Origin: Synechococcus sp. Cruz-7E5
Lineage (GTDB): Bacteria; Cyanobacteriota; Cyanobacteriia; PCC-6307; Cyanobiaceae
Length of the DNA: 64,000 nt
NCBI RefSeq assembly: GCF_024345995.1
Contig: NZ_JAGQCE010000008.1
Location: 62,001-126,000 of the forward strand
Direction of reading: 5' to 3'
Below, in pieces: positions 7,896-40,303 of the stretch. How positions within the stretch are numbered: the first letter of the stretch is position 1; each line of letters starts with the position of its first letter. The position numbers and the translations under genes were made by a program. The notes beneath the pieces were generated by a model. It had not been told where the DNA came from. It saw only the letters and a program-made list of their open reading frames with translations, and searched no databases.

Positions 7896-7911
7896 GGTCA
7901 GGAACCAGCAA

Positions 7912-8112: not shown

Positions 8113-8118
8113 TGCACC

Positions 8119-12653: not shown

Positions 12654-12657
12654 TAGG

Positions 12658-12682: not shown

Positions 12683-12967
12683 GAGCTTACTGCGCACAAT
12701 TAGAAGCCGTAGTAGTCAGCACCGACAGTATCAGCTTGACTAGGGGCCAGAACGAGGCCGGCACTGTGCGGTAGCCGCGAGACTGGGCCCACTCCAGTAC
12801 CGAGAACGGCAGCGGAGTGCCCCGCAATGTTGCGCCTCGTCCTGTCGAACTTGGTTGTGATGAACAACTCTGAACCCCGAACCCCGTTTGTATCGAATTA
12901 TGTTGGGCTGTTCTGACTTGCGCCATGTGACCTATCCATACTGCAGATCAGCTAAGCGGGTCAGGCA

Positions 12968-25850: not shown

Positions 25851-26468
25851 TTGCTCTTAAGCTCCAGTAATGCTGATTTGACTGCTACGGGCTCAATAAC
25901 TCCTGCTGACCTGGCGGATCAGGCGCCTGCGGAGCAGCCATCTGGCGCTGCTCCAGATCCAGACGCGCTCGCCCTGCGCTCCGCACCGCCGTGTGAGGAC
26001 GATGACGGCAACCCCGTTTGGCCTTCCGAGCCCTCTGCTGACAAGGGGCACGCCACTCGGTCTGGCAGGAAGAAGCGCGGCCCCGGAGTGAGGTTCCCCC
26101 ACGCCCAGCAGCCCACCAAGCGGCCCAGCTACGCGGAGGTGGAGGAGCGGATTGCAGAGGCTCAGCTCTGGATTGCACAACGCACACCCCTCGCCCACAT
26201 TCGCCAGAAAGCCCGAGAGAACTGGGGAATCACCAGCACCCATACCGTCGATCGTTACCTCCGCATCGCACGCGAGCGGATGGTGCAGGAGCTGATCACC
26301 AACCGCCTTCAGCATCAGGCGGAGCAGATCTTTGCGCTCAACGAAATCGCTCGCCGTGCTGCGGATTGCGAGCAGTTCAATGCGGCCGTCGGTGCTCACC
26401 GCGTGATTGCTGAGATCGCCGGAATCCTGCGTGCTCCCCTCAAGGCCGCAGCCGAGAACCGGCCATGA
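25851..26468 (+). CDS. Putative small terminase subunit
   Basis: 205 aa from TTG 25851. A disordered acidic/Pro-rich N-terminal third is followed by RPSYAEVEERIAEAQLWIAQ and RQKARENWGITSTHTVDRYL, which looks like an HTH for DNA recognition. A long C-terminal helix follows (HQAEQIFALNEIARRAADCE). It overlaps the large terminase gene by 4 bp, the normal position for TerS, which selects DNA for packaging. The call rests mainly on position and general shape. Confidence 0.65.
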   Translation: MLLSSSNADLTATGSITPADLADQAPAEQPSGAAPDPDALALRSAPPCEDDDGNPVWPSEPSADKGHATRSGRKKRGPGVRFPHAQQPTKRPSYAEVEERIAEAQLWIAQRTPLAHIRQKARENWGITSTHTVDRYLRIARERMVQELITNRLQHQAEQIFALNEIARRAADCEQFNAAVGAHRVIAEIAGILRAPLKAAAENRP

Positions 26469-28099
26469 CGCTGCTCGCTCCCCGCAGGCCTGCAGCCGCA
26501 CCCGTGCTGGCGCCTTACGGCAGCGTCGATGGTGGCCTGCTCTACTCACCGCGCCATGGCGACCCCTGGCGGGATGTTGGCTATCTCGGCCACCGCGCAG
26601 ATGCTGATCCCACAGCCAGCACCGCTCCGCTCTCCTTTCGTGACTTCATCGCTGATGCCTATCCCCGCTACGGCTTCCACCACTGGGCGCGGGTGCTGAT
26701 CGACCTGCTCCAACTCGTGGCCGATGGTGATCTCAATCGCCTGATCGTCACCTGCCCGCCGCGTCTCGGGAAATCGCTGCTTGTCTCCAAGCTCTTTCCC
26801 GCCTACTTCCTCTACCGCCATCCCCATCTGTTCGTGGCCATTGCCAGCTATTCGGGCGAGCTGGCCTACACGCACTCCCGCGAGGCGCGGCACTTCTACC
26901 GCATCACCGGCAACGCACTCTCCCGTGATTCGCAGGCGGTGGGCAACTGGCTCACGGATCTGCGCGGCGGCTGCATTGCGGCCGGTGTGAATGGCCCCTT
27001 CACTGGCAAGGGCTACAGCCTCGGCGTCATCGACGATCCTTACAAGGGGCCGGCCGATGCCGGCTCCAGCCTTGTGCGCGAGCGCCTGATCGACTGGCTC
27101 CGGGCCGTCTGGTTCTCCCGCGCTGAGCCCGCTCAGATCGAGGCGGGCGATGGTGCGATGCAGCCCAACCTTTCCGCCCAGGTGATCGTGCTCACCCGCT
27201 GGGATCACCAGGACGTGGTCGGCTGGCTGATGGATCAGGAGGCGGGCGCGGCCCCCCAGGGCTGGCACATCCTCAACCTGCCCGCCATCGCTGAATCCCC
27301 CGGCGAGCGGCAATCCTTCCCGCGTGCCTGCAGCGTCGAGCCGGACTGGCGCAGCCCCGGCGAGGCGCTCTGCCCCGAGCGCTTCCCGCTGCCGGAGCTG
27401 CTCAAGATCCGCGCCCGCACCGGCTCCTACTGGTGGCAGGCGCTCTACCAGCAGCGGCCCACCCCGGCGGCAGGTTTCATCTTCCTGCGCAGCTGGATCA
27501 AGCCGCCGTTCCCCCGCACCAGCCGCCGCTTTGCGCCTCTGGTGCTTTCCTGTGATCTGTCCTTCAAGGGGGAGGACGACTCGGCCTACTGCGCCTTCGT
27601 CCTGATGGGCCTGCTCAGCCCGGAGCCGCGCAAGGACGGCGACGGCCGCCCGATGGCGCCGGGCAAGCCTGAACTCGAGCTCGAAGTGCTCTGGGCCACG
27701 CGCCACCACTTCGGCCTGCCCGAAACGATCCGCTTCCTGCTGCAGGCGCTGCAGGGACTGGAAGCCCAGGGCCTGCGGCCGTCGGCGGTGCTGATCGAGG
27801 ACGCGGCCAACGGCCCGGCTGTTCAGCAGACCCTGCGCCGCCGTGTTGCCGGCATGCTGCCGATCCCCGCCCGGGGCAGCAAGGGGGCCCGCGCCCATGC
27901 CGCCGCACCGCTGGTGGAGGCGGGCCAGGTGCGCTTCCACCACCGAGCCACGCCGCTGGTGGATGAAATGCTCCGCTTCCCCAAGGGCACCAAAGACCTC
28001 GTCGATGCCTTCTGCCACGGCGCCCTCTGGCTCGAAACCCGCTACTGGCGCGGGCTGGGCGTGAGCAAGGCGCCGCTGCCCGTTCTCCTCACCCGCTGA
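26465..28099 (+). CDS. Phage terminase large subunit
   Basis: 544 aa. The ATPase domain has Walker A VTCPPRLGKSLL, Walker B LGVIDDPYKGP, and a coupling-type motif VIVLTRWDHQD. The C-terminal RNase H-like nuclease has the acidic positions LSCDLSFKGEDDSAYCAF, VLIEDAANGPAVQ and the late GTKDLVDAFCHG. This is a full-length, apparently intact headful-type terminase that would translocate and cut DNA into proheads. It is coupled to the small subunit by ATGA. No obvious inactivating change is visible, so DNA packaging could still be functional if structural proteins are supplied. Confidence 0.92.
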   Translation: MTLLAPRRPAAAPVLAPYGSVDGGLLYSPRHGDPWRDVGYLGHRADADPTASTAPLSFRDFIADAYPRYGFHHWARVLIDLLQLVADGDLNRLIVTCPPRLGKSLLVSKLFPAYFLYRHPHLFVAIASYSGELAYTHSREARHFYRITGNALSRDSQAVGNWLTDLRGGCIAAGVNGPFTGKGYSLGVIDDPYKGPADAGSSLVRERLIDWLRAVWFSRAEPAQIEAGDGAMQPNLSAQVIVLTRWDHQDVVGWLMDQEAGAAPQGWHILNLPAIAESPGERQSFPRACSVEPDWRSPGEALCPERFPLPELLKIRARTGSYWWQALYQQRPTPAAGFIFLRSWIKPPFPRTSRRFAPLVLSCDLSFKGEDDSAYCAFVLMGLLSPEPRKDGDGRPMAPGKPELELEVLWATRHHFGLPETIRFLLQALQGLEAQGLRPSAVLIEDAANGPAVQQTLRRRVAGMLPIPARGSKGARAHAAAPLVEAGQVRFHHRATPLVDEMLRFPKGTKDLVDAFCHGALWLETRYWRGLGVSKAPLPVLLTR

Positions 28100-28104: not shown

Positions 28105-28731
28105 GTGCTGCAGCTCTGCATGTCGCTGCCCCTGGATCGATCGGCCCCGCAGGGAGCATGCCGCGGAACTCCGCTGCGCCGATCTCGTGGTTCACGCCTG
28201 CGCAGGCAGGCATCCCCGCCTTCTCGCTGCCTGCAGCTGGTCTTCGCCTTTCCTGATCCCGTTCCTGCACGGCATCGACCCGGGCAACGCCGACCCTGCC
28301 GTCAGCGGCCCAGCCATCCCCACGCTGCCGCCAATGCCCTGGCGCTGGAGCACATGGATCTGGCCGAGAAGATCGCCGGCAACTTCGCCCGCCGCACCAG
28401 CCATTCCCGCGATGACCTGCTCCAGCTCGCCACCCTCGGCCTGATCAAGGCCGCTCGCCGCTTCCAGGCCGGACCCCGCGCCAACTTCCGCGCCTATGCC
28501 CGGAGCTACGCCAACGGCGAGATCACCCACTTCCTGCGGGACCACGGCTTCCTGCTCAAGCTGCCGCCGTCATGGCGGGAGCTTCATGCGCGGGGGCAGA
28601 AATTGCTGCTGCATGGAATCTCAGCTCACGAGGTGCCGGCTCGGCTGGGGATCACCACGCATCACTGGGAGCAGATCGTTCAGGCTTGCACGGTGCGGGT
28701 TGTGGCTTTCACTTCTGATGATGTTCCCTGA
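28105..28731 (+). CDS. Sigma-70-like factor (region 2), possible late-gene regulator
   Basis: 208 aa from GTG 28105. The first ~80 residues are Arg/Pro-rich with no domain and may not be translated (ATG 28353 is an internal alternative). From NALALEHMDLAEKIAGNF the sequence follows sigma-70 region 2: DDLLQLATLGLIKAARRFQ (core-binding helix) and NFRAYARSYANGEITHFLRD (melting and -10 recognition). A shorter HTH-like C terminus follows (HGISAHEVPARLGITTHHW). Many cyanobacterial phage elements carry sigma-like factors, and this position, 5 bp after terminase, would suit control of structural genes. Confidence 0.7.
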   Translation: MLQLCMSLPLDRSAPQGACRGTPLRRSRGSRLRRQASPPSRCLQLVFAFPDPVPARHRPGQRRPCRQRPSHPHAAANALALEHMDLAEKIAGNFARRTSHSRDDLLQLATLGLIKAARRFQAGPRANFRAYARSYANGEITHFLRDHGFLLKLPPSWRELHARGQKLLLHGISAHEVPARLGITTHHWEQIVQACTVRVVAFTSDDVP

Positions 28732-29149
28732 TGCTGGAACGCTCAAGATCAGCAGTGGGAGGAACCACTATGCCTTCATAGGGTGTGGATATTCCTAACT
28801 ACTAAATCTTGATGTTGGACTAAGCCGCTCCGCGGCAGATTGGGAAGAACGAGTTGTAGCGATGAAAGGAACAGAATTGAACTAGCAAACGAGGCGGTTC
28901 AAGCAGTATTGCAGTAGCTATTCTGATAGGGCAATCCACAGGCGCATATTGCGGGAGGTCTCGCAGGCATGAGTATTTGTGCTCAGACCATCCGCGCCGA
29001 CCACCCGGAATCCTTAAGCAATTCGAAAAAACGGCGGGACTTATCTGCATAGAGAAGGTCTGCCGAGCAGCTCCAAAGGGCTTGTCCAACACCGGATAGA
29101 TCGCGGCTTACGCGCGATCTATCCTTGTTCGTTGGGAGGCAGCAGAGGG
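28732..29149. other. Lower-GC intergenic stretch at the left edge of the defence-like cargo
   Basis: Composition drops sharply after the sigma-like gene. I see no gene. A strong hairpin lies at 29094-29124. Confidence 0.5.
29094..29124 (-). terminator. 12-bp perfect hairpin after the restriction-like gene
   Basis: GGATAGATCGCG (29094-29105) pairs perfectly with CGCGATCTATCC (29113-29124) over a 7-nt loop, about 25 bp beyond the minus-strand stop at 29150. No T run is present on the minus-strand side. Confidence 0.5.
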
Positions 29150-29983
29150 TCATGTTGCCTCTTCTGTAGACGAGAGCTTTCTGAGATAGTGGTTGGTCAG
29201 GGACTCTTTCGATACAAGTGTGTACAGCTCTGGGAAGCGCTGCTTCAGGTCCTGTCGTGCGCATTCAAAGAGTGGGTCAATCTTGGCATAATTTCCGCGT
29301 CCGACACGGTATACATGCGTCTTCTGGCCATCCGTTACCATGAAGAAGTCACACTGTGTCCAGTAACAGTAGCTTTTGGCTTGATCATGTGCTTGCTGAA
29401 GCTGCCGTGCATTGGAGAGATAGTTGTCTCGCTTGGCCTCTACTGTTATCAGTGCCTGTCCATTCAGAGCATCAAGCTGAGAGTTGAATGCAGCATGATC
29501 AATTGTCAAGGTTGAACCACGTGACCCGTGGGACGCTGGAACAGGCATTCCGTCAAACCTATCCTCGTCAGAGTATCCAAGACGGAGGAGAAGCGGGACT
29601 GCGAATTTAATTCCCACTTCAATTTCTGTTCTTAGCTTGAAGGTGGCAACTCTGTCAAACCATCCATCTGAATTCCAGTCGCGAGCAGGAGAAGGATGAA
29701 TGTGGCTTGAGCTTCCAACTGGTTCTTTGGCAATGGATAAATAAATCCAGTCTTCTGTGCTAATCTCCCAGCTCTCGCCATATCTTACCAAAGGCGGATT
29801 AACTGCTAGCCCCGCATCGCATAGAGCCCTAGTAATTTCAGCGGTATTGCTATCCGACCTCTTCTCGTAGCCAAACTTGGCGAGCAGGGTGCGAAGCTTT
29901 AGCCGCTTTGAGTCTGACGCCGCACTCTCAACATCAGAGGCAAGATCTTGGGCGATCGCGGGGAACTGATCAGGTTATTTCAT
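29150..29983 (-). pseudogene. Restriction-endonuclease-like PD-(D/E)XK protein with a nonsense third codon
   Basis: The readable core has a PD-(D/E)XK pattern resembling the N-terminal nuclease domain of type I restriction HsdR subunits: KFAVPLLLRLGYSDEDRF, LTIDHAAFNS (Asp), then GQALITVEAKRDN (E-x-K), then a helix with QLQQAHDQAKSY. The first start codon in the open frame is TTG at 29791. However, the same frame continues upstream with protein-like sequence (LRTLLAKFGYEKRSDSNTAE) to an ATG at 29983, broken only by TAA at 29975-29977 as codon 3. Either a nonsense mutation has disabled the natural start, or an internal TTG is used. It is a single minus-strand gene in the cargo block. Confidence 0.6.
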
Positions 29984-30061
29984 CTTTGGATTATAAGGTC
30001 GTATTGTCCTTCCAACCGTTTAGCTTTAGGGGCGGCCCAGCGGCGAAACCGACGGGGTACC

Positions 30062-30078
30062 GGCAAGCAACGCTTGCC
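30062..30078 (-). terminator. Short hairpin after the TIR-like gene
   Basis: GGCAAGC at 30062-30068 and GCTTGCC at 30072-30078 form a 7-bp stem with a 3-nt loop, 44 bp past the minus-strand stop. It may be a terminator. Confidence 0.4.
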
Positions 30079-30121
30079 AGCAGTCCCCTCGAAGGTCGGG
30101 TTATGCCACAGGCCTGGATGC

Positions 30122-30895
30122 TTAAAAAGGAATTTCCTCATCATCGGACTGTGGAGTTCCGCGACGGATGACAAATAATGACTCGTGCGATTCGACCCAG
30201 TCCCAGCCGCGTTCCGTTAGCTCTACCACTTGATAAGGCTCGCCGCGTTCGTCCGCAGTTTCCGACGCCTGAACGAATTGCTTAGAAATTAGGCGGCGCA
30301 AGCCGAGAGAGAAGCCGACTGACGTCAGGCCTGAACGTTCGACCCCGTGCTTGAGGGAGTATAGGCTCGTAACGGAGTCTGGAAATGAGACGTCACCAGC
30401 GAGGTTTGCTAGCACGTAGAGCTCCGGCTGACTCAGACCTTGAGAGGGTGCGACTTGTTCAGTCTCAGCAATTTGCCGGATAGTTTCACTTTTTGTGAGT
30501 AACGCCTTGAGTTTTTTTGTCAGATTGGAACTGAGTTCCTGAAAGTCCTGAGGTGCTTCGGACTGGTAGTTTATAATTGCTCGGTGCTGAATGTCGAACG
30601 GGAATTTCTTGCCGGTGCGCTCGTTAGAGCAAAGCATTACAACCGGACGTCCAGTGGCAAACGCGAAGCCCAACTCGTACCATACATTAGGATTGTCGGT
30701 CGTGATGTCGGCCACACAGATAGCCGCGTTTCTTATTCCATCTTCGATTGCATTAATCGGGACTTCAACCGCAGGATCTCGGTCAACTCGATACGGTTCG
30801 AGACCAGCGTCCTCGATCCCGGGTTTGAATACGGCTTCGTATCGCTTGTCGAATTTTCCGAAATCAAAAGGTTGGATGACGAAGCAAGTCAGCAT
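30122..30895 (-). CDS. TIR/nucleoside-deoxyribosyltransferase-like protein with C-terminal winged-helix-like region
   Basis: 257 aa. Residues 1-~110 follow the TIR-like/2'-deoxyribosyltransferase-like fold common in bacterial conflict systems: LTCFVIQPFDFGKFDKRYE, a charged DRDPAVEVPI, AAICVADITTDNPNVWYELG with Glu74 in the position of the catalytic Glu, and a hydrophobic strand GRPVVMLCSNE. A coiled helical linker follows. Residues ~155-245 resemble a winged helix (LSQPELYVLANLAGD; GLRRLISKQFVQ; YQVVELTERGWDWVES). Relatives usually cleave NAD or nucleotides after phage sensing; that activity is inferred. It is on the minus strand, single, with hairpins on either side. Confidence 0.7.
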   Translation of the reverse strand: MLTCFVIQPFDFGKFDKRYEAVFKPGIEDAGLEPYRVDRDPAVEVPINAIEDGIRNAAICVADITTDNPNVWYELGFAFATGRPVVMLCSNERTGKKFPFDIQHRAIINYQSEAPQDFQELSSNLTKKLKALLTKSETIRQIAETEQVAPSQGLSQPELYVLANLAGDVSFPDSVTSLYSLKHGVERSGLTSVGFSLGLRRLISKQFVQASETADERGEPYQVVELTERGWDWVESHESLFVIRRGTPQSDDEEIPF

Positions 30896-30936
30896 GGTAT
30901 TACCTATGGGGTACGCTTGCCATCACCTGGCCGCCG

Positions 30937-30977
30937 TGAGCCGCAGGGAACACAGAAACCACCCTGCGGGCGGCTCA
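30937..30977 (-). terminator. GC-rich hairpin between the TIR-like and HEPN-like genes
   Basis: TGAGCCGC (30937-30944) pairs with GCGGCTCA (30970-30977), and AGGG (30945-30948) with CCCT (30962-30965), leaving a small bulge. It lies just downstream of the HEPN-like gene on the minus strand. Confidence 0.45.
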
Positions 30978-31019
30978 GGTGTATGGCTTTGTTCGGCCTC
31001 GGCAAGAGTTATGGAACTA

Positions 31020-32342
31020 TCAGTTAGCCCATGGCACGCTATCAGTCTGTCCAACCCACTTGCGCGTTAATCTATTGGCATACCCTCCATTGTACTTAAA
31101 CAACCGCAATAAGCAAAGCTCTAAATTCCAAAGTCCTAGGTTCCAAGTGTCAATTCGAGTTTGAAATGAGTTTGCAGCGAACTTAATGCGATTCTTTTTC
31201 GTTGGATGGGTTATAGTATTTCTAATAGCTGTCATTGCCTCCGCTGTATCACTCCAGGTTTCGGACCTCGCGCGAGAGGAGAGATCCGACAGTGCTGTTG
31301 GTATGCCTGTTGGTATTCCTGCCCAATGAAGGAGAAGGCGAATACGATCAGCTGCGGGCAACTTCTCATAGCCGCCGGTGCTGAGCCAAGTCTTCTGCTC
31401 CACAAGAACTGCCGATGAAAGCAGTTCAAATGCTGTTTGGGTCTGAACAATTGAACCTTCAATAGCTCCAGACTGCGAATTTGCAGCAAGGTACCAGTGA
31501 ATGACCGTAAGCAGCTCCTCGTGCCAATCTGCATCGAACCATAGCTCTACAAAGCCAGGAAACGGATCCTGAAATATATTTGCAAATTGGAAGTCAACCC
31601 ATGAGGTGCGATAGGCATAAGGGTCAACTCGTCGACCACTCCAGCTCTGCCATGCAGTACCACCAGAGGCATCTATTCCTCGCAACAGAAATGCGCCAAC
31701 CCAGCGTCCGACTGCAAATGAAGAATACCAAGAAAATGCATCCAGAAACTCCTCGGCCTCAGAAGGTGTGAATACGCTCCCGTCTTCTTTTTCGATTTTT
31801 CCTGAATATGTAATGCCGTATCCCGATCCTCCTTGAATTGCTGCTGTCAACTCTTTCTGATTGGGCACTGGGTCAAAAGTCAGAATCCACCCTCTAGCAA
31901 CTAATTGTATTCGCCCACGCCTGAGAGAGCCGTCTGGGAATGAGATGCCAGTACCCAGCACTAAAGGCAAATTACTTACTATGAATCTTGCTTCAGCTAC
32001 AGGCAAAGGCTGCCCTCTGAGGATGTCTCCCTGTATCAGCCCAGACATCTGCTCTGACTGACCTCCATGTGTTATTCCGGTCACTAAGCAGTCTGGTATA
32101 GGGGTCCCATCGTTCAGAGTCAAGCTAGTTTTTTCAGAAATATCCGGTCTCAGAGTTCCGTGGCTTAGATCTGAAAGCTGAAACCTAATTGTTGGAGATG
32201 GCAGCCAAGCCAGGGAGATCCGCCCAGGCGACGTGAAGCTATTGCTTCCTTGAGTTACGGTGACTTGGCCATCATAAAGCAAGACACTTGAATTGGCCTC
32301 GGGGGTTTCGAAGATTGGAAGCATTGCTTCAATGTTCTCCAC
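31020..32342 (-). CDS. Large cargo protein with C-terminal HEPN-like motif (ApeA-like architecture)
   Basis: 440 aa, no close family recognised. The N-terminal ~250 residues are beta-rich and aromatic (SSVLLYDGQVTVTQ; IRFQLSDLSHG; AVGRWVGAFLLRG; SWVDFQFANIF). The C-terminal ~190 residues are helical and contain AMTAIRNTITHPTKKNR near residues 368-384, an R-N-x3-H match (Arg374, Asn375, His379) to the catalytic motif of HEPN ribonucleases. A beta-rich sensor plus C-terminal HEPN is the layout of ApeA-type anti-phage proteins, so an abortive-infection RNase is a reasonable guess. Low GC, minus strand, and position between the packaging and portal genes all mark it as acquired cargo. Confidence 0.6.
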   Translation of the reverse strand: MENIEAMLPIFETPEANSSVLLYDGQVTVTQGSNSFTSPGRISLAWLPSPTIRFQLSDLSHGTLRPDISEKTSLTLNDGTPIPDCLVTGITHGGQSEQMSGLIQGDILRGQPLPVAEARFIVSNLPLVLGTGISFPDGSLRRGRIQLVARGWILTFDPVPNQKELTAAIQGGSGYGITYSGKIEKEDGSVFTPSEAEEFLDAFSWYSSFAVGRWVGAFLLRGIDASGGTAWQSWSGRRVDPYAYRTSWVDFQFANIFQDPFPGFVELWFDADWHEELLTVIHWYLAANSQSGAIEGSIVQTQTAFELLSSAVLVEQKTWLSTGGYEKLPAADRIRLLLHWAGIPTGIPTALSDLSSRARSETWSDTAEAMTAIRNTITHPTKKNRIKFAANSFQTRIDTWNLGLWNLELCLLRLFKYNGGYANRLTRKWVGQTDSVPWAN

Positions 32343-32901
32343 TTTCTCCTCCTTACGGCAATGGGAGTGTAACGGTTTTCAAAGGATTTGGCAGTGCTTC
32401 GGCCGAACTTGTCATTCGATGGTTCTGATAACCACCGGCCATTCGGCCTTTGCTTCTGTTAACGCAGGGCCGCTCGGGCATGGGTATTCGTCAGAAGCCA
32501 ACTGCTCCATGGGCTCTCGTTGCATCACCTGAATTATTGGATGTCGTTCACTGGTCAGAGAACCAATTGTTCATGATGCTACACAAGGTTGACGGGGCTG
32601 CTTAGCCCGAGCCGCCCACGGTTGATCAGATGCCTGTGGAACAAGCTCCGCCACCAGGACGCCGGGGGCTGCTTGGTGCTCACGGCCTGATGGCACTTCA
32701 GATACTCGATGGTGTGGATGTCCTGCCCGCGCTCCAGCAGGCGCTTGGGAATCTGTCGTGTCCTCTTTCAGCGGCCCAGTCGTAATGAGTGATCGTGCCT
32801 TGAGGTTGATGGTAAGACCGAGTGATCAACTCCGCTGATCAGCAGAGAGAGATTCGGGTAGCTGCAAGCGATGGCAATAGCCCCCAGCAGCCCACCATCC
32901 C
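32343..32901. other. Intergenic region at the right edge of the defence-like cargo
   Basis: About 560 bp. On the minus strand, ~32580-32770 reads as a 60-codon open stretch without a start (includes DIHTIEYLKCHQAV and WWRSLFHRHLINRGRL), possibly a decayed phage gene displaced by the cargo. The rest shows nothing I can name. Confidence 0.4.
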
Positions 32902-34554
32902 TTGGCACCGGCCTCCCGCCAGCGCAAGCGCTCCCGCAACAAGTGGCGGTCGCCGACGCCGCAGGAGTTGCATGCGGCCTCCCGAGACGCAGCCTCGGCT
33001 GACTTCCAGCCCTGGCTTGAGCACCCCACCCTGGTCGGTCTGCGTGATCGGCTCCAGCTCACCTTCGACTGCTGGAACCTGCTCGATTGCCCGGATGGCA
33101 CGAGCCGTCGCTCGATTTACCTCCCCCCGGGCCTCAAGGAGAGCCCCGAGGCGTACCGCCGCCGGCTCGATGCAGCCAAGCCCACCGGCTTCTTCCGTGA
33201 TGCGCTGCGCACCTATGCCGGCATGCTCTCCCACTGCCACTGGCTGAGCCTGCCGTGCACTCTGCAGCAGGTCATCACCGATGTGGATGGACGCGGTACT
33301 GACCTGGGTGTGTTGCTGTTCCTGGCCGATCTGCTGGTGCTGCGTGATGGCGGCTGCCTGGTGCTGGAGCTGCCGCCGCTGCACCGCTGGCCGTCAGAAG
33401 GGGACCGGCAGGAGGCGATCGCCCGTGGTGATCGCCTCTCCTTGCCGCGCTTCGTGCTGATCCCCCGCGGTGACCTGCTGAACTGGCGCCTGCCCAATGC
33501 TGACGGCCTGCCGGTTGAGATCACCTGGCGGGAGCCGGACCAGGCGGCGCTCAAGCCTGAGCTCACCGGCTCGGTGCAGACGTCGCTGCTGAATGCGCAC
33601 GGCGGCCTGCTGCCGGAGCTGGAGCACTGGATCTATCGCACCGCCACGCTCACCGATGACGGGCTGGTGCTGCGCACCTACAAGGTGCAGCCATCACCGA
33701 GTGTCCCCAGCGGCCATCAGGCGGTGCTGGTCGGCCGGCCTGAGCTGTTCCCCAAGCGCTTCGTGCTGCCTGCCTTCTGGTACACCGCCGATGGGGCTGC
33801 CTTCGGGGAGGGCGATCTGCCGCACCTGGGCCTGGCCTACCAGTACCTCAACCACTACCGCTGCAAGAGTGAATACGAGGACCTGCTGTCGCGCACCGCC
33901 CTGCCGGTGGGCGTACGCACGGGCCTGGTGGATCAGTACGGCTTCCGCCGCGGCGAGGACGGTGAGCAGCTGGCGGCTGATCCCCTGGTGCTCTCCACCT
34001 CCACCTTCCTCGACCTGCCTGAGGGTGTGTCCTTCGAGTGGGTGGAGATCCGCGCGCGCTCGCTGGCTGAGCACCGCGCCTACCTGGTGCTGCTCGATGA
34101 AACGATGCGGCGCGATGCGCTCATTCCATCGGAGAACCGTGGCGCGGGCCGCAGTGAAACGGAGGTGAGCCTCACCGCCGGGCAGAGCTTCGCGCTGCTG
34201 CAGTCGATGGCGACGCAGAAGACCTCGCTGTTCTCCACCCTGATCGCCCAGTGGTGCTGCCTCACCGGTGATCGTGTCGCTCCAGGGGCTGGTGTTTCGA
34301 TCACCGTCTCGCCGCTCACGCCGCCATCGCGGCCCCAGCCGTCGATCACTGAGTGGCTGCAGCTGTTCCAGCTCGGTGTCGTCACGATCGATGAGATCCG
34401 CCACCAGCTGGCGCTCGCTGCCGCTGGTGGCATGACCTCGCCCGCAAACGACAACCGCCCTGACCGTCTCGCGCCGCCGGTTGCTGATTCCGCCCACAGC
34501 CACACCAACAGTCACAGCCCCACTCCCACTCCCCCCGCAGCAGCTGAGCCATGA
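32902..34554 (+). CDS. Phage portal protein, DUF4055-like
   Basis: 550 aa. After a basic N terminus, the region from RLQLTFDCWNLLDCPDGT through YLPPGLKESPEAYRRRLDAA and TGFFRDALRTYAGMLSH matches the start of DUF4055 proteins, which are portal-like. Later parts include LFLADLLVLRDGGCLVLELP, LVLRTYKVQPS, LPHLGLAYQYLNHYRCKSEYEDLL and the long helix AEHRAYLVLLDETMRRDAL near the C terminus. The portal ring is the DNA entry channel of the head. It begins the structural module after the cargo insertion and is coupled to the next gene by ATGA. The Pro/Ser/His-rich tail is probably disordered. Confidence 0.75.
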   Translation: MAPASRQRKRSRNKWRSPTPQELHAASRDAASADFQPWLEHPTLVGLRDRLQLTFDCWNLLDCPDGTSRRSIYLPPGLKESPEAYRRRLDAAKPTGFFRDALRTYAGMLSHCHWLSLPCTLQQVITDVDGRGTDLGVLLFLADLLVLRDGGCLVLELPPLHRWPSEGDRQEAIARGDRLSLPRFVLIPRGDLLNWRLPNADGLPVEITWREPDQAALKPELTGSVQTSLLNAHGGLLPELEHWIYRTATLTDDGLVLRTYKVQPSPSVPSGHQAVLVGRPELFPKRFVLPAFWYTADGAAFGEGDLPHLGLAYQYLNHYRCKSEYEDLLSRTALPVGVRTGLVDQYGFRRGEDGEQLAADPLVLSTSTFLDLPEGVSFEWVEIRARSLAEHRAYLVLLDETMRRDALIPSENRGAGRSETEVSLTAGQSFALLQSMATQKTSLFSTLIAQWCCLTGDRVAPGAGVSITVSPLTPPSRPQPSITEWLQLFQLGVVTIDEIRHQLALAAAGGMTSPANDNRPDRLAPPVADSAHSHTNSHSPTPTPPAAAEP

Positions 34555-35027
34555 GCACCACCTGGCGAGCGAGCGACCTGGAAGCGATCCGCAGCGCCCT
34601 GCTGATCCCCGTAACTGCACCTGCTCTGCGAGCGATCAATGACGCCATGGCTGGCCTCGAGCGCAGCTATCCCGACGCCATCCCGGCGGCGACCGACCAT
34701 CTCGATGCGATCAACGCCATCGACCTCCAGCTGGGACAGATCACCGCAACAGACCTCTCCAGGATCCGCAAGGTCCGGCGCAAAGGTGCGGCGGGTGGGG
34801 AGCCACCCGCCGCGCTGCCGGTCAAGAAGCTCGATGTGATCGAGTACGACACCAACCTCCTGATCGAGGAGATTGAGACTGAGTACGCGGATGCACCAAG
34901 CGAACCCGATGTGCTGCGCGCTCAGCGCCGCGCCCGGGCTGCCAGCCTGCTGCTGATCCTCCCCAGCCTGTGCAGCTGGATCCCGGAGCGGCCCTCGCCA
35001 TTCACCGGCACCATGCTGCGCGGCTGA
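34551..35027 (+). CDS. Hypothetical protein of the head module
   Basis: 158 aa, unknown family. Helical N terminus (ALRAINDAMAGLERSYPDAI; AINAIDLQLGQI), a basic turn, an acidic helix (NLLIEEIETEYADAPSEPDV), and a hydrophobic tail. It lies between portal and LysM genes with overlaps on both sides, so it is probably a head or head-tail accessory protein. Confidence 0.5.
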   Translation: MSTTWRASDLEAIRSALLIPVTAPALRAINDAMAGLERSYPDAIPAATDHLDAINAIDLQLGQITATDLSRIRKVRRKGAAGGEPPAALPVKKLDVIEYDTNLLIEEIETEYADAPSEPDVLRAQRRARAASLLLILPSLCSWIPERPSPFTGTMLRG

Positions 35028-36109
35028 TGGTCAGCACTCCTGCGCCCACTCCGCTCTGGCTGGCTCTGCAGCCGGTGGCCAATGCACGCCTGATGCTGTT
35101 TGAGGTGGAGCGGCCGAACGCACGGGAGCCGCAACCGATCCGCCGCCATGTCCTCGACTGCTTCCTCAAGTTCGATCAGATCGTCGGCAGCCGTGACAAC
35201 GGCCCCCTGGTGGACACAGGCGATGTGGCCTATGGCGGCTACCTGTGCCGCGCCGCGACACTGCCGCTCACCACGACCAACCCATGGGACTGGCTTGATG
35301 CCCAGCAGGACTGGAGCACACCTGGCTTGCGCGAGGGTTTGCCGCTGCCGTGGGATCCAGATCGCCTCGGCACCGTGGTGGCGCCCTGCGACGGCACGAT
35401 CTGGCTCGGGCCGCTGGCGCAGCTGCAAACTCCCGGCGTGCTGCCGAACAATCCCCGAGCGCACTTCGCTGGCTGCTCGGTGCTGCACTTCGGTGCGGCC
35501 TACGGCCCCGGCGGCATTGGGCTGCTCACGCAACCGCTGCTCGGTGAACGCATCAGCCTGGTGCTCAAGCCCCACCGCGTGCTGCTGCTGCGCACCGGTG
35601 ACACGCTCAACCTGATCGCCGAGCGCTACGGCACCACCGTGCAGACGCTGCGGCGCATCAATCCCGCACTAGCCACCACGGAAACGATCGTCACTGTGGA
35701 GGGCGACACGCTCTCGCTCCTGGCCGGTCGCCACGGCACCACCGTTGACTACCTCCGCCAGCTCAACCCATCGCTGCTGCGTGATGAGGGCCACACGGTC
35801 GTTCTCGGTGACACGCTCAAGACAGTCGCTGAGCAGTACGACACCACCGTCACGACCCTGCGCAACTACAACCCCGACTACGACCGCTGGCCGCAGCACG
35901 ATCCGCTGCCAGTTGGCGTGGTGCTCGATGTGTTGGCGATCCGTCCGTCCTCCCTGCTGGATCCCGGCCAGTCGCTGCTTGTGCCCGCCTACCGCCCGTC
36001 CACGCTGCTGCCGCTCGGCGCCTGGATCTACCTGCCGGAGCGGCGCGCTTCTGCCGTTGCAGAGAACGCCTGGGACTTGGATCTGACGCCCGAGCCCAGC
36101 ACGCCTTGA
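35027..36109 (+). CDS. Structural-module protein with three LysM repeats
   Basis: 360 aa from ATG 35027, which shares a base with the previous stop (TGATGG). The N-terminal ~190 residues are beta-rich (LMLFEVERPN; FLKFDQIVGSRDNGPLVDTG) and unrecognised. Three LysM-type repeats follow: TGDTLNLIAERYGTTVQTLR, EGDTLSLLAGRHGTTVDYLR and LGDTLKTVAEQYDTTVTTLR, each ending N-P. LysM binds peptidoglycan or is used in tail-tube chaperone proteins of phage. A LysM protein in this position, beside portal and scaffold genes, is unusual; tail assembly or cell-wall binding are the main possibilities. Confidence 0.7.
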   Translation: MVSTPAPTPLWLALQPVANARLMLFEVERPNAREPQPIRRHVLDCFLKFDQIVGSRDNGPLVDTGDVAYGGYLCRAATLPLTTTNPWDWLDAQQDWSTPGLREGLPLPWDPDRLGTVVAPCDGTIWLGPLAQLQTPGVLPNNPRAHFAGCSVLHFGAAYGPGGIGLLTQPLLGERISLVLKPHRVLLLRTGDTLNLIAERYGTTVQTLRRINPALATTETIVTVEGDTLSLLAGRHGTTVDYLRQLNPSLLRDEGHTVVLGDTLKTVAEQYDTTVTTLRNYNPDYDRWPQHDPLPVGVVLDVLAIRPSSLLDPGQSLLVPAYRPSTLLPLGAWIYLPERRASAVAENAWDLDLTPEPSTP

Positions 36110-36184
36110 TGGCTGGTCAATGGCAATAGAAGGAGTGAGCGCAGCCCGGATGGGGCGCTTGCAGCACCACAGCCGTGATGGGTG

Positions 36185-37063
36185 ATGCCTCAATCCTTCC
36201 TCGACCAATTGCACCAGCTCCAGACCTTCCCCCAGCTGCAGCAGCAGCCCAACCAGTCGCCGGCGCCGGCCGCTCCCGCCGCGTCGGCTGAGGCTGAACC
36301 CGATGACCTTGAGCTGGACCCCAGCGAGCTGGCGCCCGATGACGACGATCACGACGTCGCTGAGACCGCTGAAAGCTCTCAGCCGGTGGCTCCAGCTGCT
36401 GGCCCCGATCCACTGCGGGCTGAGCGCCGCCGCAACAACCAGCTGGAGAAGGAACTGCGCACCCTGCGCACCCAGCTGGCGCGCTTCTCGGAGATCAACC
36501 CCGATGAGTACGCCCGCCTGCAGGAGACCGAGCGGCAGAAGCAGGAGCTGGAACGTCAGATCCAGCAGCGGGAGTCCCAGCTCAGCGATGCCCACACCCG
36601 CCGGGTTCGCACCGTCGAGAAGGAGCGCGACGACGCCCGCCAGCAGATCCTCGACCTGCGCAAGGAGCGGCTGCTTGAGCGCTTGTTCCACGACGCCGAG
36701 GGCCGGGTCGGCGGTGACGATCGGGGCTCGTTCTTTGAGATCTTCAAGGCGCAGTGCGGGACCATGTTCCGCCTGGCCAAGGACAAGACCGGCAGGGATC
36801 AGCTCGAGCCGATCGATCACGACGGCAATCCATTGATCGGTGAGCAGGGCGCTGTCAGCTCCGCTGACCTGATCGAGGATCTACGCGGCCATGCGGTGCT
36901 TGGCTTCCTGTTCCAGCAACGCGGCGGGCCCTTCCCCAACGCCATGCCGGATCGCTCCTTCGATGGCAGTGATGATCCGGTGAACCTGCAGGCGATGAGC
37001 AGCAGCGAGCTGTACCTGGCGGCGGTTCGCAAGACCACTCCGACCGCTCGCGCGGCGCACTGA
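36185..37063 (+). CDS. Coiled-coil scaffold-like phage protein
   Basis: About 292 aa. A Gln/Pro-rich N terminus and an acidic disordered section (ELDPSELAPDDDDHDVAET) precede a long coiled coil (residues ~80-170, including NNQLEKELRTLRTQLARF and RQKQELERQIQQRESQL). The C-terminal domain has LERLFHDAEGRVGGDDRGSF, then AVLGFLFQQRGGPFPNAMPD. This is the shape of a capsid scaffolding protein, normally followed directly by the major capsid gene, which I cannot find. A GTG lies one codon before the chosen ATG. Confidence 0.6.
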   Translation: MPQSFLDQLHQLQTFPQLQQQPNQSPAPAAPAASAEAEPDDLELDPSELAPDDDDHDVAETAESSQPVAPAAGPDPLRAERRRNNQLEKELRTLRTQLARFSEINPDEYARLQETERQKQELERQIQQRESQLSDAHTRRVRTVEKERDDARQQILDLRKERLLERLFHDAEGRVGGDDRGSFFEIFKAQCGTMFRLAKDKTGRDQLEPIDHDGNPLIGEQGAVSSADLIEDLRGHAVLGFLFQQRGGPFPNAMPDRSFDGSDDPVNLQAMSSSELYLAAVRKTTPTARAAH

Positions 37064-37365: not shown

Positions 37366-37813
37366 TCGAACCGACCCACGCACTCAGGCGCACGAACCGC
37401 GCAGGGCCGCACCAGTGCGCAGCACTGCGGCATCAGCGGTGGCGCCGGTCAACGCAACCAAGCACTGAGCCAGTCCCGCACGCACCGAAGGTGAGCGGGG
37501 CTGGCGGTGCAGCGAACAGCCAACCAATCGTCAACCGACCGACAACCCAGATCCAAGCAGCCAACAGTCGGCAACTCACATCCAATCAACAATCAATTGC
37601 CAACCCCCAAAAACGAAGCAACAACAAACGAGCAACATTAAAAAGAGGGGGGTATACCCCTAAAAGGAGGCTCGTTTTCCCGGCGGGTGGCTTCGCCAAT
37701 GTTGCAAAATCTGGACAATCAAACGACACCTCATTGGTAACTCTCGCTGGAGCCTCAACAAGCGGATGAAGTGAAGCGCGAGCAGGCGCGAGAGGCGAAG
37801 CGCAGGCCGCACG
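37366..37813. other. A/C-rich intergenic stretch with a GTATAC palindrome
   Basis: From ~37500 to 37640 the plus strand is rich in CAA and CAAC and poor in G. It ends in the 12-bp perfect palindrome GGGGTATACCCC (37649-37660), followed by AAAAGGAGG, which resembles a ribosome-binding site without a convincing gene after it. No coding evidence. Confidence 0.45.
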
Positions 37814-37984
37814 ATGGCTGAGTACCAAGTCCCCCACGAGGGGCTATGCAAACTGTGCGGGCGCGAGCGGTGGAACCACCTCCAGCTCAGGCGGCTGTTC
37901 GCTACTCTCCCAACTGGAGGGCTGGCACTAGCGATCCAGCATGGTTCTCATAATTGGGAAATCTCGGCAGTTTTAGCAATGTAG
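37814..37984 (+). CDS. Short zinc-finger-like ORF, possibly truncated
   Basis: 56 aa: MAEYQVPHEGLCKLCGRERW and then a helical LRRLFATLP. One CxxC pair. The last ~15 codons lie in sequence of much lower GC, as if a phage gene were cut by the inserted cargo. Translation is uncertain. Confidence 0.35.
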   Translation: MAEYQVPHEGLCKLCGRERWNHLQLRRLFATLPTGGLALAIQHGSHNWEISAVLAM

Positions 37985-38292
37985 CGAGGGCGGCCTTCTG
38001 ATTTCGGATCATTTTGTGGGATGTAGATGGCTTTAATCTCTGTTCGGAAGGGCATATAGACTGTGCCACAAAGGGGCCCGAATTATTCAGTAGGCTACAG
38101 GGAGATTTCGTCTAAGTACAATTTCTGAGCCTCTGGTCTATGCGGTGAGGTGTTCCTGTTCTTCGCCTTCCTTGTAATGCATTAATATCGCACGAACTTG
38201 TAAGAACCTAGACCATCTTGATTCCCTTTAGGACTTGCCCGATGCCGCATACGAGTGCCACCCTGGCGGCAAGGTTGGACTCCAGAGAGGTT
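37985..38292. other. Lower-GC intergenic region
   Basis: About 300 bp with no recognisable gene or RNA. It is the start of an AT-richer cargo segment that runs to about 39.9 kb. Confidence 0.45.
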
Positions 38293-38661
38293 CTACCTAT
38301 TCTCAATATCTATTGGCGGGATGTTGGTTGCCGGAGACTTGACATTAATTTCTTGCTGACGCACCCCGTCTGGCCCATCAATTCTAAGTTTCCACTTGCC
38401 AGCTCTAACGCTTGAAAAGTAGTATAAACCCATGGAATTCGTGTAGCTCGGCCCTGCTACGGTCTCAGCGCCGTCCACGGTTAGAATTCTTGTGGGTACA
38501 CCTCTAACTGGACGGCCTCCTTTAATTACCTGGCCTTGAACAACCTGTGCTGATAATGGCGTGTTGAAAAGGACAATGACGCCACCGATCCAAAGTGAAT
38601 GGAGGCCTGTGGAGATAAAGTGAGTGACACTAAGCTGCAGAATCTTCTTCATTGGAATCAT
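38293..38661 (-). CDS. Secreted carboxypeptidase-regulatory-like (CNA-B-type) protein
   Basis: 122 aa. The N terminus (MIPMKKILQL... with LWIGGVIVLFNTPLSAQ) is a signal peptide with an SAQ cleavage-like site. The mature part, VQGQVIKGGRPVRGVPTRIL then GLYYFSSVRAGKWKLRIDGP, is a small beta-sandwich of the carboxypeptidase-regulatory/CNA-B type, as in many exported binding proteins. AT-rich relative to the phage genes. It is near the membrane-protein gene at 38810, and the pair may be a cargo unit. Confidence 0.6.
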   Translation of the reverse strand: MIPMKKILQLSVTHFISTGLHSLWIGGVIVLFNTPLSAQVVQGQVIKGGRPVRGVPTRILTVDGAETVAGPSYTNSMGLYYFSSVRAGKWKLRIDGPDGVRQQEINVKSPATNIPPIDIENR

Positions 38662-38809
38662 TGAATAGAAGTGCGGGCGGAGTTGCTATTGAGAGTCTCC
38701 TTGGACCCTGGAATCAATGAACTAAATGTGCTTGGCTGAGATCTTCTGATAACTGTGGTTAGTCAAGAGCAATGATCAATAAGACCTTCAGTGATGCTCA
38801 GGGCTTAAC

Positions 38810-39613
38810 CTATGGCGGGAAAGGGTATGGCTCCGTAGTGGGCTGCTCAAGCTGAATAGGCTCTTTAACTGTTATTTCTCTGTTGTCAATCTCGGCGTCA
38901 ACCTTTATTATGTCCGGATCACTTCTCATTGCATTCTGACCCAAGGCATTCCCACCGCACTGCTGCTTGTCTTCTTGTAGGCATAGCACAACCTTTTTGC
39001 TGGGTATGGAAGGATCTTCGCTTTGCATTAGGAGGGCTAACGTCTTAGTGTTAGATGGATTTATTTGTACTCTTGTTAGGGTAAATCTGCCATCTGGGTC
39101 AACCAATGCTGGCTCGGGGGGAATTACAATTGGACTGAATTTAGTTAATAATGCCTCATTGCTAAGGCTTTTCCCTGACATTCTCCCCTTGATGGTATAT
39201 TCTGGATGATGTAATATAGACGTAAATGCGTCAATAACTTTCCCTGCGCCTTGAGAATCCAAAATGGCTGCAAATGCTGCAATAAGACCCACCAGACCCC
39301 CTCCTCCCAGCCACACGCTTACTGTTTTCCATCTATCTGACACCGGCAACTTCCTTACGGTAATCTTAGCCCTTAGTCGCTCAGGCCTGGAAGATAGCGG
39401 CTCTTTCCAGCGGATTAGCGCCAAGGAGCTGTCTACGTCGAAATAATCATCAGGAATCCGACTGCGGCCATTGTATAAGCCATATACACTGGCGCTAGGC
39501 AGCCTCAAGGCATCACAATACCAACCTTCTTCGCCATTCCCCCAGTCATCATCTGTAAGTGAAATTACGAACGATAGTGCATCGTTGCTAGGCTCTTCCA
39601 CGGCAGCATCCAT
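38810..39613 (-). CDS. Membrane protein with unknown N-terminal and C-terminal domains
   Basis: 267 aa, family not recognised. The N-terminal ~80 residues are soluble (LSFVISLTDDDWGNGEEGWY; SSLALIRWKEPLSSRPERLR). A single hydrophobic segment at ~100-118 (WLGGGGLVGLIAAFAAIL) crosses the membrane. The C-terminal ~140 residues include a beta-like section (RFTLTRVQINPSNTKTLALL) and end Pro-rich. It precedes the secreted protein gene on the same strand with a ~150-bp gap. Low GC suggests foreign origin. Confidence 0.5.
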   Translation of the reverse strand: MDAAVEEPSNDALSFVISLTDDDWGNGEEGWYCDALRLPSASVYGLYNGRSRIPDDYFDVDSSLALIRWKEPLSSRPERLRAKITVRKLPVSDRWKTVSVWLGGGGLVGLIAAFAAILDSQGAGKVIDAFTSILHHPEYTIKGRMSGKSLSNEALLTKFSPIVIPPEPALVDPDGRFTLTRVQINPSNTKTLALLMQSEDPSIPSKKVVLCLQEDKQQCGGNALGQNAMRSDPDIIKVDAEIDNREITVKEPIQLEQPTTEPYPFPP

Positions 39614-39934
39614 TGCAGAATTGACTAACCATGAATCCTAGAGTAAATGTGTGTGACCAAGTCTGAGTGTTAAGGTAACTTAAGTGAGCTGTCCGTGCAT
39701 AAATTGTACAGGCGCCATGGCCCAAAATGTTCAGCATGAACATCTGATGCTCAAGTCTAGGGGAAGCCTGATAAGTCGATCGATGGCAGGTATTGACCTC
39801 GTCAGCGATCGAAACCCGGATGAGACAAGGATCTAAGCTACTCCTGCGAAGAAAGTATCTCCCACCGGCGCCTGCTTGAGAAGCACAATCTTGGTCAGAT
39901 CTTCGAGATCGCCTGAAGCCACCACGCCAACACG
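39614..39934. other. Intergenic region, no gene recognised
   Basis: About 320 bp of AT-richer sequence. GC rises again at its right end, which marks the edge of the second low-GC cargo. Confidence 0.4.
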
Positions 39935-40303
39935 TTAGTGATCCAGGATCCTGAGGGACTTGACTTTGGCTCCATTCCCATTGGCGGCTGATGGCCGTGA
40001 ATCGGATACCGGTGATCGGGCGCCCTTGGCTGTGGGCTGTGCCTGGGCCTCGGCTTCGCAGAGGAGTTTGCCGGCGACCTGACGGGCCAGATACTTCGGA
40101 ATTCCAGGCCCTGTCTGCCACTGGCTGCCATCCGTGTCGTGATGCCTGGCGGCATCAAAGACCGTGATCAGGTGCAGCAGGCAGCCCCGTTTGCCGAACT
40201 TCTCGAACTCGATCGTGCCTGTTGGCGCCAGATCAAGGCGCTGGATCACGCGCCAGCGGATACCGGCTTGGGAGTGATCGAACAGAACGGGATTGGACGC
40301 CAT
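39935..40303 (-). CDS. Small hypothetical protein
   Basis: 122 aa from ATG 40303. VLFDHSQAGIRWRVIQRLDL, then TIEFEKFGKRGCLLHLITVF, looks like a compact beta-rich domain; the last third is disordered. Unknown family. High GC, like the phage-type genes. The longer open frame upstream is low complexity. Confidence 0.45.
   Translation of the reverse strand: MASNPVLFDHSQAGIRWRVIQRLDLAPTGTIEFEKFGKRGCLLHLITVFDAARHHDTDGSQWQTGPGIPKYLARQVAGKLLCEAEAQAQPTAKGARSPVSDSRPSAANGNGAKVKSLRILDH

What the first reader, a model, noticed from the sequence alone, without database searches (positions are those of the whole stretch)
28732..32901. Defence-like cargo inserted between packaging and portal genes
Three minus-strand, lower-GC genes (restriction-like, TIR/deoxyribosyltransferase-like, HEPN-motif) interrupt an otherwise plus-strand phage module. 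Each has a hairpin near its end. This is a hot spot layout like those described for phage and satellite defence cargo.
Basis: partly seen in the sequence, partly recalled or inferred. Interest (0 to 1): 0.72.

Follow-up and report, generated by a model that had tools for sequence, protein, structure and literature searches.

The report
Prophage integron carrying defence gene cassettes
A virus lodged in a photosynthetic bacterium carries, between two of its particle-building genes, a gene-swapping platform (an integron) loaded with likely anti-virus genes, and most related viruses carry a different set at the same spot.

Summary
Three low-GC minus-strand genes (HsdR-N-like, TIR/deoxyribosyltransferase-like, HEPN-motif) sit between a sigma-factor gene and the portal gene of a prophage head module in a cyanobacterium. 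In 57 related slots from 41 genomes this gap is always over 600 bp and lower in GC than its flank, and its genes nearly all differ; some match known defence genes (Lamassu, IetAS, type IV restriction). Two more distant loci have short gaps without such cargo. The cargo is an array of integron gene cassettes: an attC model built without window sequence finds two sites in 64 kb, both here, and a third belongs to a short class common in relatives. An integrase remnant and an attI-like region lie on the portal side; one relative (G240) keeps a full-length integrase there. The c1 cassette recurs alone in three other genomes, once on a contig with an integrase. But 29 of 57 slots show neither attC nor integrase with these models, and this genome's other integrase genes look incomplete, so the window copy may be frozen. 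Defence and present-day recombination are inferred. Integrons in phages are known; a conserved integron slot in a phage family's head module appears new.

The parts
25851..26468 (+). conserved gene upstream of terminase, no PHROG hit
   Evidence: found by tblastn before TerL in 57 of 57 related slots, gap to TerL median -3 bp; PHROGs none
26465..28099 (+). terminase large subunit
   Evidence: phrog_38 E 5e-71; found in 60 of 400 family genomes, own included
28105..28731 (+). phage sigma-factor-like gene; its stop codon marks the left edge of the slot
   Evidence: Pfam Sigma70_r2 E 1.5e-10; PHROG RNA polymerase sigma factor
28733..28820 (-). terminal attC site, its right end next to the sigma stop
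   Evidence: R1 42.8 bits, E 4e-8 in 64 kb
28822..29133 (-). small fourth cassette, no convincing gene
   Evidence: 84% DNA match bounded at 28822-29133 in G008:C24
29084..29137 (-). short-class attC site after c1
   Evidence: R3 78.5 bits, E 2e-17; 38 of 88 scored places elsewhere match only about this stretch
29131..30016 (-). c1 cassette
   Evidence: 81% matches in G005 and G004, 73% in G247:C29; in two of the three the match reaches the GTTGGA edge
29150..29791 (-). c1, HsdR N-terminal-like nuclease domain; early in-frame stop upstream, intact relatives exist
   Evidence: Pfam HSDR_N_2 29.6 bits; relatives 276-287 aa
30016..30106 (-). probable attC of the c2 cassette, decayed; no model hit
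   Evidence: RYYYAAC-like and GTT boxes; GTT edge coincides with the start of the c1 cassette match
30122..30895 (-). c2, TIR/nucleoside deoxyribosyltransferase-like domain, C-terminal part unassigned
   Evidence: Pfam 26.1 bits (cut-off 28.8), PADLOC TIR E 1.8e-9; 61% relative in viral contig L210
30907..30997 (-). attC site after c3; right box altered
   Evidence: R1 37.5 bits, E 9e-7 in 64 kb; 44 of 88 scored places elsewhere match only this stretch
31020..32342 (-). c3, HEPN-motif protein (RX4H), candidate RNase
   Evidence: motif in c3 and six relatives; 9 of 292 phylum genomes, own included; 7 plasmid records
32371..32580 (-). attI-like region; crossover GTT about 32371-32373; imperfect palindrome from 32546
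   Evidence: palindrome with 3 mismatches in the window; in relatives 19 hits in slots vs 4 outside; position
32582..32740 (-). remnant of integron integrase C-terminus
   Evidence: tblastn 49% to residues 266-309 of the integrase on contig C29, E 5e-8
32902..34554 (+). portal protein
   Evidence: Pfam DUF4055, phrog_145 portal E 7e-22
34551..37063 (+). rest of the conserved head module: 158-aa gene, LysM-type gene 34970-36109 (name by eye), head scaffolding 36182-37063
   Evidence: conserved order in relatives; scaffold phrog_206 E 8e-10

Best explanation
The interval is a prophage-borne integron, here decayed to a cassette array. Reading the minus strand from the portal: integrase remnant, attI, cassette c3, cassette c2, cassette c1, a small fourth cassette, terminal attC, then the sigma stop codon. 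An integron integrase, encoded beside the portal in a relative and probably once here, joins the attC hairpin of a circular cassette to attI or another attC at G^TT. Cassettes thus enter and leave between two late genes without breaking them, mostly antisense to the phage genes. Related prophages keep the site and change the contents, so the slot acts as an exchangeable cartridge. Much of the cargo looks anti-phage or toxin-like and would protect the lysogen or the phage from competitors. Shown by sequence: fixed position, variable contents, attC structure, integrase gene or remnant, independent recurrence of the c1 cassette. Inferred: integrase activity now, supply in trans, defence function of c1-c3, benefit to the phage. 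In this genome the two other integrase genes look incomplete, so a working enzyme may be lacking here.
For: Relatives: 57 of 57 slots over 600 bp (639-8212, median 2209), GC lower than TerL+sigma in 57 of 57; 115 clusters from 123 ORFs in 48 slots. attC: R1, from 11 sites none in the window (two from elsewhere in this genome), gives only two hits in 64 kb, both in the slot on the gene strand. In 910,616 bases of relatives 27 hits reach 20 bits: 24 in slots (155,010 bases), 2 at the end of sigma homology, 1 past a portal; 27 of 27 on the minus strand (12 of the 24 lie in the nine loci that supplied training sites). 11 of 16 inner-helix pairs show two-sided changes, covariation score 0.393 vs 0.121 shuffled, with two unpaired bases. 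Integrase: L198 carries a full-length integrase (453 bits, no stops) directly before the portal, an attI-like GTTAGG, low-GC genes and an attC at the sigma stop; partial ones in 7 further slots at E up to 0.01 and before the portal in L013. Cassette traffic: c1 recurs without c2 or c3, each copy followed by an attC of 62.8, 51.3 and 61.8 bits.
Against: 29 of 57 slots show neither attC (R1, R2) nor integrase; R3 adds none. Homologous exchange or IS insertion may fill some: transposase-like ORFs, by eye, in L048, L058, L060, L105, L107 and L198. L192 and L193, left out of the 57, have short gaps without attC. The window's own integrase is a short remnant. The two over-cut-off integrases of this genome match only 56-313 and 118-313 of 315 positions, and the C29 protein lacks 48 residues against L198's. 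The right box of the c3 attC is altered and c1 is probably broken, so this copy may be frozen. c2 and c3 were not seen as cassettes elsewhere among the places scored in 400 family genomes, at most two candidates per genome. No recombination, expression or defence was measured. Structure models were too poor to use.
Confidence: 0.88

Rival explanations
1. Ordinary phage moron hot spot: cargo is swapped by homologous recombination in the flanking sigma and portal genes, and the attC-like hairpins are terminators.
For: 29 of 57 slots have no recognised integron part. Flanks are conserved: sigma ends and up to about 270 bp before the portal align in one subgroup. Phage defence hot spots of this sort are known (recalled: P2/P4 work).
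Against: attC-type covariation with two unpaired bases; a terminal site at -5/-6 bases of the sigma stop coordinate in 10 loci, five of them training loci and one a 15-bit hit; integrase gene or remnants in 8 of 57 slots; the same attC stretches at 82 other places in family genomes, without the rest of the cargo.
Confidence: 0.08
2. A host chromosomal integron fragment was captured once by the phage ancestor and has only been decaying since; no cassette exchange goes on.
For: All slot integrases but one seen here are partial. The other integrases of this genome are incomplete too.
Against: Contents differ almost completely between relatives; one full-length integrase; slot integrases fall in at least two places among host-family integrases, though three of the four rows are partial.
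Confidence: 0.2
3. The three genes form one three-gene defence system.
For: Adjacent, same strand.
Against: attC sites lie between or after them and c1 recurs without c2 and c3 in three genomes.
Confidence: 0.04
4. Cargo serves something other than defence (host fitness, regulation).
For: Some slots hold genes whose Pfam names suggest no defence: GTP cyclohydrolase II, LanC-like, LigB. Several of the proteins tested singly had no family hit.
Against: Several slots hold established or candidate defence families.
Confidence: 0.25

Closest known systems
Integrons in phage genomes (Qi et al. 2023, PMC9892861; abstract, introduction, methods, first part of results and passages read)
   Same: intI, attI, attC and cassettes in temperate phages; methylase and toxin-antitoxin cassettes
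   Different: There 3 complete integrons, 1 In0 and 17 CALINs among 10,705 genomes. Here one slot is kept across a prophage family with changing contents. The paper's main text holds no word beginning 'cyanobacter', 'cyanophage' or 'Synechococcus'.
Chromosomal integrons as stores of defence genes (recalled; PMC12409362 on V. cholerae islands seen only in the listings)
   Same: Cassettes with anti-phage and toxin-antitoxin genes
   Different: Those are chromosomal; here the platform sits inside a phage head-gene module
Phage and satellite defence hot spots, e.g. P2/P4 (recalled)
   Same: Fixed locus, variable defence cargo
   Different: No integron machinery there as far as I recall
Integrons of the same cyanobacterial family (e.g. 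contig C29 of this genome; 68 of 400 genomes over the integrase cut-off). A Synechococcus integron is already on a species list in PMC3108266 (passages)
   Same: L198's slot integrase groups with C29's; same attC model hits, integrase in the same direction as the cassettes
   Different: None of the phage module's genes within the 19.9 kb held around C29's integrase; its cassettes include a HicBA-like pair (by eye)

Membership tests
Integron | integron-type tyrosine recombinase gene | tested here: met
   Met in relative L198 (453 bits, cut-off 265). In the window only a C-terminal remnant: the window copy alone is a CALIN-like decayed integron
Integron | attC sites: R/L boxes, paired arms, extrahelical bases | tested here: met
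   R1 and R3 hits in window; covariation
Integron | attI site with G^TT crossover | tested here: inconclusive
   Conserved region and GTT at the expected edge; no attI model available
Integron | cassettes move independently | tested here: met
   c1 cassette and fourth cassette recur separately
Integron | recombination activity | not testable with these tools
   needs attC x attI assay
Phage defence hot spot | same place in related elements, different cargo | tested here: met
   57 of 57 occupied, 115 clusters of 123 ORFs in 48 slots; two loci outside the 57 have short gaps
Phage defence hot spot | cargo of defence families | tested here: met
   9 of 10 proteins, picked as likely defence genes, hit PADLOC at E<=1e-5, from 7 of 8 loci; L113 none. 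By homology only; several models are candidate systems
Intact prophage | complete set of virion and lysogeny genes | tested here: inconclusive
   Head module present; only 11 window ORFs were scanned with PHROGs, none a capsid, and only one (no hit) lay downstream of the head module; window genes beyond about 42.5 kb that I compared were not found in 6 related downstream regions
HsdR (type I restriction subunit) | nuclease plus translocase domains | tested here: not met
   c1 has only the N-terminal domain; relatives 276-287 aa
ApeA-type HEPN | HEPN_Apea domain over Pfam cut-off | tested here: not met
   c3 none; best relative 21.7 bits vs 24.4
TIR effector | TIR-domain profile match and catalytic Glu | tested here: inconclusive
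   PADLOC TIR E 1.8e-9; WYELG motif kept in L210; catalytic role of the Glu recalled

The most novel reading that the evidence does not exclude
A family of cyanobacterial prophages maintains a dedicated integron landing site between its sigma and portal genes, through which integrases, in cis or supplied by the host, load defence cassettes from chromosomal integrons. Phage particles would then carry these cassettes between cells, coupling the host's integron gene pool to phage transfer and phage-phage competition. (Lowered from 0.45 on checking, because this genome's own integrases proved incomplete.)
Probability: 0.42. Interest if true: 0.9.

Novelty: new variant of a known kind. Interest (0 to 1): 0.77.

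Why it matters
It gives a mechanism for how a phage defence hot spot can change its contents: site-specific cassette exchange by an integron, besides homologous recombination and transposition. It links two gene stores that are usually studied apart, chromosomal integrons and prophage cargo. The slot also marks a place to look for new defence genes, since several of its proteins matched no family.

Tried and rejected
Reading the cargo as one three-gene system: rejected, attC sites separate the genes. Reading the hairpins as terminators: the generic scan was at chance level and attC models explain three of them. AlphaFold models of c3 (pLDDT 33) and c2 (47): too poor, no fold search made. PDB sequence search: c3 nothing usable (best E 0.39), c2 only weak hits to the deoxynucleotide hydrolase Rcl (E 0.003). 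Portal and c3 scans of genome contigs and a c3 scan of viral contigs: no relatives. TerL scan of viral contigs: nine relatives at 28-38% (best segment), too distant to use. The strict attC pattern scan (window plus 48 slots) was superseded by the models; at score >=10 it gave 14 hits on the slot minus strand against 0.6 in shuffles and 1 in upstream control, but 8 on the slot plus strand; I put that down to the near-palindromic boxes, so it does not give orientation. Rfam: only the tRNA.

Rows dropped. Of 80 loci fetched around TerL or portal, 57 from 41 genomes had TerL, sigma and portal in order; 23 were left out (contig ends, missing or distant genes; list). Three of these had sigma and portal but no TerL that passed: L065 (gap about 1.9 kb), L192 (463 bp) and L193 (427 bp). 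L113/L114 are identical over the interval and L128/L129 98% alike, so independent slots are slightly fewer than 57; L128/L129 are also nearly as GC-rich as their flanks. Cargo scanned: 92 of the 116 ORFs of at least 130 aa; I left out transposases, integrase parts, near-duplicates and unlikely frames by eye. The big genome searches score only a few candidates per genome (3, 5, 2), so their place counts are lower bounds.
Full report
Setting. The window is G000:C30:62001-126000 of a 3.16-Mb genome with photosystem II genes, so a cyanobacterium. That its family is the picocyanobacterial one is my inference from genome sizes and from the best-ranked terminases in the phage collection, those of cyanophages PSS2, S-CRES and S-CBS2 at 34-35% identity. 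The plus-strand module runs: conserved gene, terminase large subunit, sigma-factor-like gene, [cargo], portal, 158-aa gene, LysM-type gene, head scaffold.

Observation. The three cargo genes, their strand, their lower GC and hairpins near their ends are as described. c1 carries an HsdR N-terminal domain, c2 a TIR/deoxyribosyltransferase-like domain, c3 an RX4H motif kept in six aligned relatives. The TTG-start c1 ORF is a fragment: its longer frame has an early in-frame stop, while three relatives are intact.

Hot spot. The portal was found in 18 of 149 relatives and the terminase in 60 of 400 family genomes, own genome included. I fetched 80 loci; 57 from 41 genomes, including a second copy in this genome (L050), had terminase, sigma and portal in order. 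The sigma-portal gap is 639-8212 bp, median 2209, over 600 bp in 57 of 57. Other gaps exceed 600 bp in 2 of 57 (first gene-TerL), 0 of 55 (TerL-sigma), 6 of 48, 1 of 41 and 9 of 33 (LysM-scaffold). Slot GC averages 0.521 against 0.677 for TerL+sigma and is lower in 57 of 57, though only slightly in L128 and L129. In the first 48 slots, 123 ORFs of at least 80 aa gave 115 clusters, 108 singletons. Of the seven shared clusters four are the twin loci L113/L114, one looks like a transposase, and two (L062/L109, L134/L135) are shared cargo. The largest ORF is on the minus strand in 45 of the 55 slots that had one. None of c1-c3 was found in the 60 loci tested. Not every relative carries cargo: L192 (portal 51% identical, contig too short to hold TerL) and the distant L193 have gaps of 463 and 427 bp with a plus-strand ORF and no attC. 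The slot may therefore have been acquired within this phage group.

Cargo. I tested ten proteins, picked as likely defence genes, singly against PADLOC; nine hit. L061 carries Lamassu LmuA and LmuB, L054 IetS (with an AAA ATPase beside it), L050 HEC-01A and HEC-01B, L111 HEC-04, L049 a type IV restriction enzyme, L106 an AriA/OLD-like ATPase, L121 a subtilase; L113 had no PADLOC hit but a double-GTPase Pfam domain. A pooled scan of 92 cargo proteins matched 199 PADLOC models (E 1e-5; many are overlapping ATPase models hit by the same three proteins) and 70 Pfam families (E 1e-4). Among the 25 Pfam families shown are ABC-3C parts, AbiGi and FRG, but also GTP cyclohydrolase II, LanC-like and LigB. 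L102's protein had no Pfam hit.

attC sites. Comparing slots showed repeats of roughly 60-90 bp shared between otherwise unrelated cargo. They have the form RYYYAAC ... GTT with long arms and two unpaired bases on one arm. On 11 such sites, none from the window, 82.9% of cells pair, 11 of 16 inner pairs change on both sides, and the covariation score is 0.393 against 0.121 in shuffles and at most 0.085 when slid; the structure was drawn from one of these sequences, which favours it. Outer pairs often fail, as expected if the right box is completed by phage sequence. The covariance model R1 found two sites in the 64-kb window, 28733-28820 next to the sigma stop and 30907-30997 between c3 and c2, both on the gene strand. 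In the 57 relatives 27 hits reached 20 bits: 24 in slots, two (L103, L108) at the end of sigma homology where the frame runs on past the usual stop, one after a portal start (L200); 27 of 27 on the minus strand. Twelve of the 24 lie in the nine loci that supplied training sites, so 12 are new. In ten loci the terminal site lies 5-6 bases before the sigma stop coordinate (one of them a 15-bit hit); in the window at +2, in four others at +15 to +17. A second class (R2) and a short class (R3) were modelled; R3, built without the window, hits 29084-29137 with 78.5 bits. RNAalifold by itself placed two unpaired bases in the R2 structure.

Integrase and attI. Window 32582-32740 encodes a remnant of the C-terminus of an integron integrase. 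This genome has two integrase genes over the TIGR02249 cut-off, on C29 (positions 56-313 of 315) and C13 (118-313), and several remnants; the C29 protein lacks 48 residues near its start compared with L198's. Integrase parts lie in 8 of 57 slots, some at weak E-values up to 0.003, and directly before the portal in L013. In L198, from a single-contig genome, the integrase is full length and uninterrupted (453 bits) and starts next to the portal. It is followed by an attI-like stretch ending in GTTAGG, low-GC genes, a transposase-like gene and an attC abutting the sigma stop. A palindrome just after the integrase occurs 19 times in slots (155 kb) and 4 times outside (756 kb) with up to 5 mismatches, and once in the window, at 32546 with 3 mismatches. 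A tree places slot integrases in at least two places among integrases of the host family; L198 and C29 lie in one clade with support 100/99. Three of the four slot rows are partial. None of 30 other integrase loci showed any gene of the phage module within the flanks held.

Cassettes move. Searched against 400 family genomes (at most two candidates scored per genome), the cargo DNA fell into its parts: of 88 places elsewhere, 44 match only the attC after c3, 38 only the short attC after c1, three match the c1 unit (29131-30017), one 28822-29133, and two are 26-base matches. The c1 relatives are each followed 14 bases later by an attC (62.8, 51.3, 61.8 bits); the one in G247 lies on the contig (C29) that also holds a full-length integrase; in two of three the match starts at the GTTGGA edge. 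So the window holds at least four cassettes by my reading: c3, c2, c1 and a small fourth; the c2/c1 edge rests on that match, not on a model hit.

Limits. 29 of 57 slots gave neither attC nor integrase; the palindrome adds L134 and L199. Transposase-like ORFs sit in several slots. Nothing here shows that recombination still happens, that an integrase acts in trans, or that c1-c3 defend anything. Genomes with the terminase have an integrase hit in 47 of 60 cases against 45 of 340 without it, but genome size and kinship confound this.

Known and new. Integrons in phages were reported by Qi et al. 2023 (PMC9892861): 3 complete integrons, one In0, 17 CALINs among 10,705 genomes. Cyanobacterial integrons are known too (a Synechococcus entry in PMC3108266). 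Searches for integron with attC, prophage and cyanobacteria (5 papers), integron integrase with Synechococcus (11), cyanobacterial integrons (3) and integron with prophage and antiphage (50, of which 15 listed) showed, by title and start of abstract, no paper on a conserved phage slot of this kind (open-licence library only). P2/P4 hot spots and defence cassettes of chromosomal integrons are recalled. I file the slot as an integron by comparative evidence, the window copy as its decayed form.

Noticed in passing
window 37400-40120: A second low-GC stretch with minus-strand genes (38293-38661, DUF1416/carboxypeptidase-regulatory-like; 38810-39613 unknown) follows the head module; no attC model hit there. 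The LysM-scaffold gap is also variable in relatives (9 of 33 over 600 bp).
   Followed up: partly
L155 (G000:C2), about 9840-13550: A third, broken slot in this genome: sigma fragment 83% identical, integrase remnant, attC, and a collagen-like ORF where the portal should be; a portal N-terminal fragment lies on the other side of sigma.
   Followed up: partly
L152 (G000:C29), 7351-9932: Small integron away from the phage module: integrase with a gap near its start, 248-aa gene, attC, then an 88-aa and a 74-aa gene that look like HicB and HicA (by eye), attC.
   Followed up: partly
400 family genomes: Integron integrases over the TIGR02249 cut-off in 68 of 400 genomes, several of them with more than one, and many fragments: integrons seem common in this cyanobacterial family.
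   Followed up: partly
L192 (G054:C155), 552-1015: A relative with a short sigma-portal gap that holds a plus-strand 143-aa ORF instead of antisense cargo; possibly the state before the integron came.
   Followed up: partly
L210, 5001-6616: A viral contig has a 61% relative of c2 plus a 264-aa gene, both lower in GC, on the strand opposite to neighbours that look like a tail/baseplate module by eye.
   Followed up: no
L226 (E. coli IncY plasmid): A distant c3 relative sits next to type I restriction-modification genes and two DUF262 genes.
   Followed up: no
upstream of portal, many loci: A short motif around TGGCAATAGC/TGGCAAGAGC recurs some 30-40 bases before the portal in two subgroups; perhaps a late promoter read by the phage sigma factor.
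   Followed up: no
L103, L107, L108 at the end of sigma: With the cassette inserted, the sigma frame runs on past its usual stop into the cassette.
   Followed up: no
L112, 13584-14289 (oriented): A broken integrase lies about 8 kb after the portal start in this relative.
   Followed up: no
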